Source: Bacteroidaceae bacterium (GTDB lineage Bacteria; Bacteroidota; Bacteroidia; Bacteroidales; Bacteroidaceae). From it: a stretch of DNA of 37,511 nt. Shown in pieces: positions 34,337 through 37,511 of the stretch. The stretch lies in NCBI GenBank assembly GCA_024398595.1, contig JAKSIX010000022.1, positions 1 through 37,511 of the forward strand, written 5' to 3'. The notes beneath the pieces were generated by a model, which saw only the letters and a program-made list of their open reading frames with translations, was not told the origin of the DNA and made no database searches. The translations under genes and the position numbers were made by a program. Within the stretch, counting starts at the first letter, position 1, and each line of letters starts with the position of its first letter.

Positions 34337-35395
34337 TTATTTCCAGAACGCAACCCAATTCTGTTCGTTTTCGTTCAGTGTGGCCACATCGGCCTTGTAG
34401 TCCGGGTTCGGAATATACCAGGTGGTCGATTCGAAGTAGTCCTGCAGTTCTTTGCTGTTGAAAATGTAGCCCCGATGCGCAAAAGGCAGGTTCTTCGCTA
34501 TGCGGCGCTGTTCCGGCGTGAAACGGGCATAAAAATCGTCTTTCGGTTCGGAACTTGAGTAATATGGAAGAGGCATGTACTGTTTTGAGAAACTTTCAAA
34601 ATCAAAATGTCCGGGCCATGTCCACACTGCGGCAGAGATGTTCAATTCACCATCAGGATGAAAATTCTCCTTATGGAATCTGATGCTGCCATACTGCATG
34701 TGGAACTGAACCCTGTCAGGTATGCCGGCTGCGACAGGAGCATATCTGCCTTTTCCCAAGATTTCCCATTCATCACCGTCCTTCCAAAAGGTGGGCTGAA
34801 TGTAAAACGAAATGCGGTCACCCATGTCAACCTGCAGAGTGAAGTCATCAATCTGGTGGTTTGCCCAACGGTTGGCCGCCGTCAGAACGTATGGGAAATA
34901 ATTGACTCTGCCATTAAAGGCAACAGACAAGTCAAAGTCATAAGTATGCTGGATGACATTCAGTCCCGGACGGAACCTGGCCTTGAAGTAATAGACATAG
35001 TCACATATCGGTTCAGGGCATTCCATCTCTGCAAACTCCTTCTCGCATTCTTCATCTGACATACCCTTTATTTGCCCGTCTATGACATATTTGGCAGCAA
35101 TCTTCCGTCCTCCATCGTATGTAAAGTCAATGTGAGCGATATCGAATGTCTGTGGATTGCCGTTTATAACAACCTTGAAGTTATGAATGTTCGGATGCTC
35201 AGGGAATGATATCGGATTAGTATAATCCCCACTCTCAGCCTCAAACCCTACAAGCACTTCCTTCTCATCTGAGGGGTTGAAGAATTCGTAATACACATTG
35301 ACCTGTACTATGTCTTCTTTGCGGGTCAGTGTAAGTACTTCCTTTTTTACACTTATGTCCGATTCGTTGACAGGTATCAACTGATTTCCTTTCAA
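34337..35395 (-). CDS. YARHG-domain protein lacking a signal peptide
   Basis: The 352-aa product has an N-terminal beta-rich part like DUF4424 ('GNQLIPVNESDISVKKEVLTL', 'VNVYYEFFNPSDEKEVLVGFEAE') and a C-terminal YARHG-type module ('QRRIAKNLPFAHRGYIFNSKELQDYFESTTWYIPNPDY'). Related proteins are normally exported. Here the only available start is a TTG at 35395, with an in-frame TGA 6 bases earlier, and no signal peptide. It is either a cytoplasmic variant, or a gene whose 5' end was lost. It has its own terminator. Confidence 0.7.
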   Translation of the reverse strand: MKGNQLIPVNESDISVKKEVLTLTRKEDIVQVNVYYEFFNPSDEKEVLVGFEAESGDYTNPISFPEHPNIHNFKVVINGNPQTFDIAHIDFTYDGGRKIAAKYVIDGQIKGMSDEECEKEFAEMECPEPICDYVYYFKARFRPGLNVIQHTYDFDLSVAFNGRVNYFPYVLTAANRWANHQIDDFTLQVDMGDRISFYIQPTFWKDGDEWEILGKGRYAPVAAGIPDRVQFHMQYGSIRFHKENFHPDGELNISAAVWTWPGHFDFESFSKQYMPLPYYSSSEPKDDFYARFTPEQRRIAKNLPFAHRGYIFNSKELQDYFESTTWYIPNPDYKADVATLNENEQNWVAFWK

Positions 35396-35550
35396 TTTTC
35401 AACTCTATTTTCATTCAATTGTTGTTTGCTCACATGTTAAGTATTGTTAATAACACACAAAAATCAAACGATTTTGTGCAAAAAAATAAACCGATGGGTT
35501 GATAATAAAAAACACATTGTATATTTGCAAAATAAACCTACAAGTTGATT
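35396..35550. other. Intergenic region with the TAC operon promoter
   Basis: AT-rich DNA between two divergent genes. It holds the promoter at 35499-35527. No signal-peptide coding frame continuous with the YARHG gene was found. Confidence 0.5.
35499..35527 (+). promoter_or_regulatory. Promoter of the toxin-antitoxin-chaperone operon
   Basis: TTG (35499-35501) and TATATTTG (35520-35527) are 18 bases apart, fitting the Bacteroidetes promoter. The leader would be about 17 bases. Confidence 0.6.
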
Positions 35551-36192
35551 ATGGAGTTTGATCTCATATATCCAGAGAAAAAGACTGATGTATTCAATGC
35601 CGGATGTGTGGTTGTAGCAGTATTCTTTGATGAAGAAGAATTAGTGTCATTTGGAGTAAAGAGTGACTCGTTGGAACTGGATGATGCCTTCTATAACTAT
35701 AATCAGTTTGAAAAAGCATTCGAATTATGGTCTTCCCCAAAATATCTGAGTGACTTCTATGATCAGTTCAAACAGTATTTTGAGGAAGAGTATTGGGGTA
35801 ATATTTCGGAGGATACTTTTTTGATAGAAGTTGGTAAATCTTTAAATAAAATTAGAGAAACTATATGTAAGGCTATTGAAAGCAACACATTTTATGAACT
35901 GATTGAGCCACTGGAGCCTGCCGAGGAGGAAAAGAGACTATATGAAAGTATAAGGGTCAAGTTGAAGCAAGGAACAATTATCGGTCATTATCCTTTCCGC
36001 TTTTATGCAATTGAAGTTGAAGAAAAAAAGTGTTATATAATTTCTGGAGCTACAATTAAGGTGCATAAGGATATGGGGAAGGCTGACAATACAAAGATTG
36101 AGTTGAAGAAACTGTCACACATACTTCAATTCATTTCCGACAAACACACAGATACGAAAGACACATTCGTAACGATGTTACAAGCGAACTGA
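35551..36192 (+). CDS. Putative RelE-like toxin of a TAC-type operon
   Basis: The 213-aa product (ATG 35551; the frame opens at a TTG two codons earlier) starts with 'EFDLIYPEKKTDVFNAGCVVVAVFF', continues with a helical part (residues 62-118, 'SPKYLSDFYDQFKQYFEEEYW'), and ends in a compact beta segment, 'FRFYAIEVEEKKCYIISGAT' (149-168), followed by 'NTKIELKKLSHILQFI'. That ending recalls Bacteroidetes RelE/ParE-like toxins with 'RFYAIK...CYIITGGAIKL'. The identification is from memory of that pattern. It precedes an HTH gene by 44 bases and a SecB-like gene, and so fits a toxin. AT-rich and codon-poor relative to the core genes. Confidence 0.6.
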   Translation: MEFDLIYPEKKTDVFNAGCVVVAVFFDEEELVSFGVKSDSLELDDAFYNYNQFEKAFELWSSPKYLSDFYDQFKQYFEEEYWGNISEDTFLIEVGKSLNKIRETICKAIESNTFYELIEPLEPAEEEKRLYESIRVKLKQGTIIGHYPFRFYAIEVEEKKCYIISGATIKVHKDMGKADNTKIELKKLSHILQFISDKHTDTKDTFVTMLQAN

Positions 36193-36236
36193 ATAATAAA
36201 ATACTTATCTATATAATTAATAACTACTTAATTTAA

Positions 36237-36650
36237 ATGACTATGCGTGCACGTGTCAAGCCTACAAAAAACTGGATCTCAAAATCCAAAGTTGAGATTG
36301 AGAATGAGGAGGAACTCCTTGCATGCAGGAGAATCATCCTCAAGATTGTCCGTTACATGAAGGACTATGAGATGAGTCAAAAAGATCTTGCTGAAAAATT
36401 GAATGTCTCCCCACAGTACATCAACAAACTTCTTCATGGTCAGGATCTTGATTTGAAAATAACGACCGTATTAAGATATGGACGTATTCTTGGACTTAAA
36501 TTAATAGTACTTCCTGAAGATATGCCAACTGTTCAACAAATCACTTTAAATTACTATCAGCATATAGCTCAGATAGACAGATTTGGGAAGAGTAATTTCA
36601 ATTACACTGGTTATAACACTTTAATAAAAGGAGTTCAAGCACTCAACTGA
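36237..36650 (+). CDS. XRE-family HTH antitoxin with C-terminal tail
   Basis: The 137-aa product has a HTH_3/XRE DNA-binding domain at about residues 41-88 ('MSQKDLAEKLNVSPQYINKL' with 'LDLKITTVLRYGRILGLKLI'). This is the usual fold of HigA-type antitoxins, which bind their own promoter and the toxin. After it comes a tail of about 47 residues rich in Tyr, Phe and Asn ('LNYYQHIAQIDRFGKSNFNY'), which could be the chaperone-dependent segment that SecB-like TAC chaperones recognise. That role is inferred. It is followed by the SecB-like gene after 2 bases. Confidence 0.8.
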   Translation: MTMRARVKPTKNWISKSKVEIENEEELLACRRIILKIVRYMKDYEMSQKDLAEKLNVSPQYINKLLHGQDLDLKITTVLRYGRILGLKLIVLPEDMPTVQQITLNYYQHIAQIDRFGKSNFNYTGYNTLIKGVQALN

Positions 36651-36652
36651 TT

Positions 36653-37099
36653 ATGGAAACAGTAAAATATGCCCTTAGAGGCATCTCAATAGATCAATTC
36701 GCGACCCCTTTTGAGCCGTCAAGCGAGAACATCCAGCTAAATCTCAACATTCCTATTCGCACAAACTACCAGGAACGTGCAATTGCTGTCGGTGCGAATA
36801 TCCAGTTCCGTGAAGATGACAGACCGTTCCTTGTGGCAGAGGTCTTGTGTCATTTTATCATTGAGGAATCATCTTGGAATACGCTTACTGACGATTGTAA
36901 TAAAGACGCAGTACTGCCGAAATGGTTCATGAATAATCTTGTAAGGATTGCGATTAGTACATCAAGAGGCGCATTGTGTGCAAAAACAGAAAATACGCCA
37001 TTTGCGAAATTTTTTCTTCCGATTATTGAAATGCCAGATGATCAAGGCGAAAATATAATCATACCAAAGGACCCCAAAACTACAACTGAAAATAGATAA
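36653..37099 (+). CDS. SecB-like chaperone
   Basis: The 148-aa product has the SecB-type layout. Beta strands at about residues 26-73 ('IQLNLNIPIRTNYQERAIAV' and 'RPFLVAEVLCHFIIEESSW'), then 'VLPKWFMNNLVRIAISTSRG' (87-106) with 'TPFAKFFLPIIEM' closing. That last block corresponds to the conserved 'TRG.L.AKT..TPF..F.LP.I' of SecB-like proteins in Bacteroidetes. SecB proper is a translocation chaperone; its solitary relatives beside HTH antitoxins protect the antitoxin in toxin-antitoxin-chaperone systems. It is the last gene of the operon and is followed by an AT-only hairpin. Confidence 0.75.
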   Translation: METVKYALRGISIDQFATPFEPSSENIQLNLNIPIRTNYQERAIAVGANIQFREDDRPFLVAEVLCHFIIEESSWNTLTDDCNKDAVLPKWFMNNLVRIAISTSRGALCAKTENTPFAKFFLPIIEMPDDQGENIIIPKDPKTTTENR

Positions 37100-37112
37100 A
37101 GTCAGAGAATTG

Positions 37113-37142
37113 AAATATTATTGTTTAATTTAATAATATTTT
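37113..37142 (+). terminator. Probable terminator of the TAC operon
   Basis: AAATATTATT (37113-37122) and AATAATATTT (37132-37141) are perfect complements with a 9-base loop. The stem is all A/T, so it is weaker than usual; a short T-run follows. Confidence 0.5.
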
Positions 37143-37156
37143 CCCAATTCGTTAGA

Positions 37157-37511
37157 CTATATTGATTTTTTCGGTCTGCCTGGCCTCCGCTTCTCCGCCT
37201 GTTCCGGCTTGGGCAGCAACCCCAGATTCTGCAGCATCAACTGGTTGGCCGGGCTGATTCTGATGAGTTGCCAGCCGGAGCCGTCAAGCCTGATTTTCTT
37301 CGCCCGCTTCAGTTGGGCCATTATCTTGCCGTAGGTCATGCTGTCAAGCAGCTTACACTTGTCGAACGACTTCAACAGTCTGAAGGTAAGCAGTGTGGAG
37401 AGGAAGTCGCAGAACTCACTTCCCATGACGGAGTAGTCATCGTGCGCGCGAGTCTCGTCAAAGCCGCAGGCAGATTTGTAATAGCGCATCACGACCTCTA
37501 TTTCCCAACGC
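37157..37511 (-). pseudogene. IS4-type transposase, C-terminal part (runs off the window edge)
   Basis: The minus-strand frame reaches the right edge and begins there with RWEIEVVMRYYK, which matches the Y-(2)-R-(3)-E-(6)-K signature of IS4-family transposases, whose Glu is the third catalytic residue. About 118 residues are seen, ending PGRPKKSI, a short basic tail. It cannot be told from the window whether the element is intact, so this is a partial CDS as far as visible. The left end of the element should lie between 37100 and 37156. Confidence 0.75.

What the first reader, a model, noticed from the sequence alone, without database searches (positions are those of the whole stretch)
35499..37142. 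Three-gene toxin-antitoxin-chaperone (TAC) operon with an unusual large toxin
Under one promoter lie a 213-aa protein with a RelE-like C-terminal ending, an XRE/HigA-like antitoxin with a Tyr/Asn-rich C-terminal tail, and a SecB-like chaperone. Seen directly: gene order, spacing of 44 and 2 bases, the HTH motif and the SecB-type block 'TSRGAL.AKT..TPF..F.LP.I'. Known: in TAC systems such as HigBA-Rv1957 a SecB-like protein stabilises the antitoxin through a C-terminal addiction segment. Inferred: the tail at residues 91-137 is that segment. The toxin here is about twice the size of HigB and does not belong to it on sight, so this could be an undescribed TAC combination.
Basis: partly seen in the sequence, partly recalled or inferred. 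Interest (0 to 1): 0.75.

Follow-up and report, generated by a model that had tools for sequence, protein, structure and literature searches.

The report
Chaperone-guarded RelE-like toxin operon
A Bacteroidota bacterium carries a three-gene switch, a likely mRNA-cutting toxin, its antidote and a SecB-like chaperone that probably keeps the antidote alive, which looks like a new branch of a known kind of bacterial self-shutdown defence.

Summary

The toxin belongs to a Bacteroidota family with no Pfam or NCBIfam name; PADLOC lists relatives as candidate PDC-M64. Of 79 scorable related loci, 30 carry the chaperone by profile, all with antitoxin tails of 41-96 residues. Of the other 49, 46 have tails under 40; one of the three exceptions (L124) has a possible, weakly matching SecB-like gene. 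This coupling is what the chaperone-addiction model predicts, though a tree-corrected test had no power.

Verdict: a toxin-antitoxin-chaperone system by anatomy and family evidence, a new variant of a known kind. Toxicity, chaperone dependence and phage defence were not tested.

The parts
35551..36192 (+). Toxin gene, 213 aa, predicted RelE/HigB (BECR) fold with helical insert and about 30 extra residues near the N-terminus
36237..36650 (+). Antitoxin gene, XRE/HTH_3 domain plus C-terminal tail
   Evidence: Pfam HTH_3 6.7e-8; PADLOC PDC-M64C 4.1e-9
36504..36647 (+). Putative chaperone-addiction (ChAD-like) tail, 48 residues, ending GVQALN
   Evidence: Tail defined by alignment of 87 antitoxins; such tails are present with the chaperone, rarely without
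36653..37099 (+). SecB-like chaperone gene, 148 aa
35499..35527 (+). Bacteroidota-type promoter-like match TTG-N18-TATATTTG
   Evidence: 30 of 100 shuffles of the window also gave a match; the consensus itself is recalled
35483..35506 (+). Copy 1 of a 24-nt repeat AAAATAAACC..GTTGAT: candidate operator, overlaps the upstream promoter element
   Evidence: 19 of 24 matches between copies; 4 of 300 shuffles as good
35529..35552 (+). Copy 2 of the 24-nt repeat: candidate operator up to the start codon
35389..35391 (.). Junction: homology to three same-genus relatives of the left flank ends here; likely insertion or rearrangement point
   Evidence: blastn (alignments with L146, L137, L136 end at window 35389, 35390, 35391)

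Best explanation
A toxin-antitoxin-chaperone (TAC) module. The toxin is a RelE/HigB-fold protein that most likely cuts mRNA in the ribosomal A site (inferred from fold and from conserved basic residues). The antitoxin's HTH part represses the operon and its body binds the toxin (inferred). Its 48-residue tail is unstable alone and is held by the SecB-like chaperone; when the chaperone is drawn off, for example by a phage structural protein, the antitoxin is degraded by a Clp protease and the toxin stops translation, aborting infection (inferred by analogy with CmdTAC, HigBAC and M. tuberculosis HigBA-SecB). Shown here: gene order, predicted folds, family conservation, and the tight co-occurrence of tail and chaperone. 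Inferred: toxicity, neutralisation, chaperone dependence, trigger.
Against: No experiment. The window antitoxin itself ends ALN, not an AA-type degron, and its chaperone does not match PD-T4-9_C. Foldseek E-values are weak (0.035 toxin, 1.4e-3 chaperone). No Pfam SecB hit for any of 40 chaperones and only one chance-level NCBIfam SecB hit (1 of 40, E 0.046). The tail and end-residue statistics are not corrected for relatedness; the corrected test found only 2 usable pairs on well-supported branches (7 on all branches), on average 1.8 the expected way, none the wrong way, p 0.5. Two loci keep long tails without a detected chaperone (L102, 51; L130, 177, a longer ORF). Phage defence rests on analogy and on some defence genes near relatives (no control).
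Confidence: 0.85

Rival explanations
1. A TAC module whose role is not phage defence but stress response or maintenance of a mobile element: the toxin acts when export stress or loss of the genes depletes the chaperone or antitoxin. (It shares the mechanism of the best explanation and differs in role.)
For: The module looks acquired: GC 33-41% against 45-53% to its left, homology break at 35389-35391 in three relatives, toxin plus chaperone in 2 of the 21 same-genus genomes sampled, and it lies near a contig end.
Against: PADLOC lists the family as a defence candidate; some flanking genes of relatives match Ssp, type I methyltransferase/specificity and PD-T4-1 models (uncontrolled). TACs tested in E. 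coli defend against phage (PMC11618068, PMC9519451, PMC11980606, passages read).
Confidence: 0.3
2. The third gene is a general export chaperone that happens to sit downstream of a two-gene TA pair; it does not act on the antitoxin.
For: SecB-like genes of the same broad family stand alone, beside what reads as secDF, in one other genus of the family (L038, L048).
Against: Long tail and chaperone co-occur in 30 of 30 loci and both are absent in 46 of the other 49; the chaperone gene starts 2 bases after the antitoxin here.
Confidence: 0.07
3. The 213-aa protein is not a ribonuclease toxin but another enzyme or a non-toxic partner.
For: No family model names it; TAC toxins vary in chemistry (CmdT is an ADP-ribosyltransferase, PMC11618068).
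Against: Predicted RelE/HigB fold; K170 directly after the last strand and R150 at the start of the strand before it, the order in which HigB1 has K95 and R77 (by strand order only, no superposition; PMC9098466 passages).
Confidence: 0.15

Closest known systems
HigBA1-SecB(TA) of M. tuberculosis (Rv1955-Rv1956-Rv1957), the best characterised TAC
   Different: Toxin 213 aa against about 120, with helical insert; no sequence match to any PDB chain; host Bacteroidota
HigBAC and MqsRAC of E. coli
   Same: TAC layout; phage-defence TACs with RNase toxins (PMC11980606 and PMC9519451 passages)
   Different: Toxin family; the phage trigger here is unknown; the window toxin matches no Pfam model at E up to 1
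CmdTAC (PD-T4-9) of E. coli
   Same: TAC with SecB-like chaperone; a relative's chaperone matches its model weakly
   Different: CmdT is an ADP-ribosyltransferase; this toxin is predicted RelE-fold
PADLOC candidate system PDC-M64
   Same: Antitoxin and chaperone match PDC-M64C; 19 of 21 toxin-family members match a PDC-M64B model and 11 of 21 a PDC-M64A model
   Different: The window toxin itself matches no PDC-M64 model; the term PDC-M64 is in 0 papers of the library, so no function is described there

Membership tests
Toxin-antitoxin-chaperone (TAC) systems | Adjacent co-directional toxin, antitoxin and SecB-like genes, conserved across genomes | tested here: met
   30 of 90 related toxin loci by profile; L124 possible
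Toxin-antitoxin-chaperone (TAC) systems | Third protein has a SecB fold | tested here: met
Toxin-antitoxin-chaperone (TAC) systems | Antitoxin related to a canonical one but with a C-terminal extension (ChAD) | tested here: met
   48-residue tail; relatives without a detected chaperone have a median of 8
Toxin-antitoxin-chaperone (TAC) systems | ClpXP-type degron at the antitoxin C-terminus (reported for TAC antitoxins) | tested here: inconclusive
   18 of 30 in the family, but the window protein ends ALN
Toxin-antitoxin-chaperone (TAC) systems | Toxin neutralised only when antitoxin and chaperone are both present | not testable with these tools
   Needs expression assays
RelE/ParE (BECR) toxin superfamily | BECR/RelE fold | tested here: met
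HigB/Gp49/RelE Pfam families | Match above curated cut-off | tested here: not met
   None of them among the 8 families matched by any of 21 members at E up to 1
Pfam SecB (PF02556) | Match above curated cut-off | tested here: not met
   No match in the window's genome nor in 40 chaperones; the family rang in 4 of 14 control genomes
CmdTAC | ADP-ribosyltransferase toxin | tested here: inconclusive
   Model matches are RelE-type; absence of a fold from that list does not exclude it
PADLOC PDC-M64 | Component models match | tested here: inconclusive
   Antitoxin and chaperone match at about 4e-9 and 19 of 21 toxin-family members match, but the window toxin does not; the system's own rule was not available

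The most novel reading that the evidence does not exclude
A Bacteroidota-wide TAC family in which one large RelE-fold toxin lineage has switched between chaperone-free and chaperone-addicted forms, the antitoxin tail and the SecB-like gene being gained or lost together, and whose helical insert gives the toxin a target or ribosome contact not seen in HigB.
Probability: 0.35. Interest if true: 0.65.

Novelty: new variant of a known kind. Interest (0 to 1): 0.5.

Why it matters
It would extend chaperone-guarded toxins to a large, unnamed toxin family in the Bacteroidota. The family holds both chaperone-bearing and chaperone-free members, so how an antitoxin becomes addicted to a chaperone can be tested by comparing natural relatives such as L103 with L084 and L118.

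Tried and rejected
Pfam, NCBIfam, PHROGs and PDB sequence searches with the single proteins gave no credible match for toxin or chaperone; profile searches of the PDB also failed. Foldseek against viral proteins gave nothing under E 0.29. Plasmids: toxin none, chaperone one distant match in Persicobacter, 32% identity. Viral contigs: the chaperone was not found with two single queries; the toxin with the two-gene form was found in two contigs. A tree-corrected test of tail against chaperone had too few pairs. A flank survey by PADLOC had no control and cannot show enrichment: 94 flank ORFs of the chaperone loci from L064 on were scanned out of 109 listed (118 before nine over 900 aa were dropped; 15 more I left out by hand, mostly cut by a locus end); 25 of 182 matching families were shown. 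Of 113 toxin ORF hits, 90 were kept (at least 150 aa, E at most 1e-10, duplicates dropped); 3 lacked a downstream antitoxin ORF and 8 had under 1300 bases of room, leaving 79. One kept row, L022, is a broken toxin copy. L052 (toxin E above 1e-10, chaperone present) fell out at this step. L002:2374-3012 entered one profile iteration by drift and was ignored. Conservation of the TGG.IKL block is partly built in, because the genome-contig scan used that pattern; R150, Y152 and W60 are outside it.

Papers: passages only of PMC11618068, PMC5105189, PMC11980606, PMC8165232, PMC9519451, PMC9098466, PMC10440598, PMC9252829 and PMC12619734; PMC4257090 was searched for six terms with no hit; of all others I saw search listings only. 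The Cell Host Microbe 2024 paper on TAC phage sensing and Sala 2013 are not held, so a prior description of this toxin family there cannot be excluded. I saw no title or abstract start describing it in the listings.

Full report
What is there. The window spans contig G000:C15 (37511 bases) of a 2.21 Mb, 95-contig genome. Contig lengths suggest that its genus includes the uncultured Bacteroidales assemblies RUG10916 and RUG11961 (L060 and L062 equal G147:C9 and G161:C29 in contig length; that RUG means rumen is recalled). Near the right end lie three same-strand genes: toxin 35551-36192, antitoxin 36237-36650 and SecB-like gene 36653-37099, with gaps of 44 and 2 bases. A same-genus genome has the same trio at 51%, 48% and 57% identity, with differences concentrated at third codon positions.

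The family. A protein search of 301 genomes of the same taxonomic family found the toxin in 26 and the chaperone in 26. Four of them (G000, G119, G191, G001) have toxin and chaperone in one operon by inspection, and a fifth (G076, L052) has a more distant toxin of the family with a chaperone. A scan of the genome-contig collection confirmed 173 relatives and kept 80, nearly all Bacteroidota, with one Balneolota and one Ignavibacteriota row in the tree. In 87 of 90 non-redundant loci an ORF follows within 150 bases, and the printed sequences show the same HTH type by eye.

Tail and chaperone. I measured the residues after a fixed point at the end of the HTH domain. In 30 loci with a profile-detected chaperone, tails run 41-96; in 49 without it and with room downstream the median is 8. 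Scored at 40 residues, 30 of 30 against 3 of 49 have a long tail. Of the three exceptions, L124 has an ORF overlapping the antitoxin by 4 bases that reads as a divergent SecB-like gene; its profile match is weak (E 0.072; hhalign probability 57%), but no other of the 49 loci has any ORF under E 1. L130 is a much longer ORF; L102 is unexplained. On the toxin tree, chaperone loci need 8 changes against 25.4 for shuffled labels; one clade of 53 rows has none (44 two-gene, 9 unscored), and six two-gene loci lie among the others. L103 groups with chaperone-bearing L084 and L118 and lacks both parts. The tree-corrected pair test had 2 usable pairs and no power, so the association is strong but the number of independent events is not established.

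Degron. TAC antitoxins are reported to end in ClpXP signals such as LAA (PMC11618068, passage) or VA (PMC8165232, passage). In this family [AV][ASG] ends 18 of 30 chaperone-locus antitoxins and 5 of 49 others (not corrected for relatedness). The window's own antitoxin ends ALN and L002's PVS, so this part is not shown for the window.

Regulation and arrival. A promoter-like match of Bacteroidota type (consensus recalled) lies at 35499-35527, flanked by two copies of a 24-base repeat (4 of 300 shuffles as good). The second copy is largely conserved upstream of L002. These are candidate operators for autorepression. The module has 33-41% GC beside 45-53% on its left, and the left flank loses homology to three relatives at 35389-35391, cutting off the start of a secreted-type protein gene. 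Toxin and chaperone together are in 2 of the 21 same-genus genomes sampled. It looks acquired.

How it most likely works. As in HigBA-SecB, HigBAC, MqsRAC and CmdTAC, the chaperone holds the antitoxin's tail; removal of the chaperone exposes the antitoxin to a protease and frees the toxin, which here should cleave mRNA on ribosomes. The trigger is a phage structural protein in CmdTAC (T4 capsid, PMC11618068) and HigBAC (lambda tail protein, PMC11980606), both from passages. For this operon the trigger, toxicity and dependence are inference. Two viral contigs carry the two-gene form, one beside a gene that I read by eye as a terminase, so phages or prophages also carry the toxin family.

Novelty. 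TAC systems with RelE-fold toxins are known; this toxin family and its Bacteroidota chaperones are unnamed in Pfam and NCBIfam and appear in PADLOC only as candidate PDC-M64, a term in no paper of the library. The most relevant TAC paper is not held. I rate it a new variant of a known kind.

Noticed in passing
window 34337-35395 (-): The YARHG/DUF4424 gene lacks the signal-peptide-like start that its 76-79% identical relatives have; stops lie just upstream and homology ends at 35389-35391.
   Followed up: partly
G000:C2:43865-43942 (L054 1504-1578): A decayed remnant of a second chaperone gene (25 aligned residues, 72% identity, one in-frame stop) in the same genome; the toxin search of that genome found only the window copy.
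   Followed up: partly
L033 and L051: SecB-like chaperone downstream of two other genes; the first gene of L051 weakly resembles HEPN (Pfam 0.0048, below cut-off), and L033's looks similar by eye. Possible TAC with another toxin type.
   Followed up: partly
L031, L032, L037, L049, L052, L053: Further TAC-like trios with smaller toxins in the same family of bacteria, toxins sharing LR.Y and a glycine-rich stretch near the end (by eye).
   Followed up: no
L038, L048: SecB-like genes standing alone next to what reads as secDF by eye; may be the housekeeping SecB of that genus, which Pfam SecB misses (4 such proteins, L036, L040, L044, L048, were among the 40).
   Followed up: no
L147, L148: Two-gene toxin-antitoxin form on viral contigs, one beside a terminase-like gene, one among phage-type genes (gene reading by eye).
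   Followed up: partly
window 37157-37510 (-): 117-residue ORF running off the contig end, transposase-like by eye, no Pfam match and no other copy found in the genome.
   Followed up: partly
L100 antitoxin end: The antitoxin of Fulvivirga aurantia ends GESNYAMAA, which recalls a tmRNA tag (recalled, not tested).
   Followed up: no
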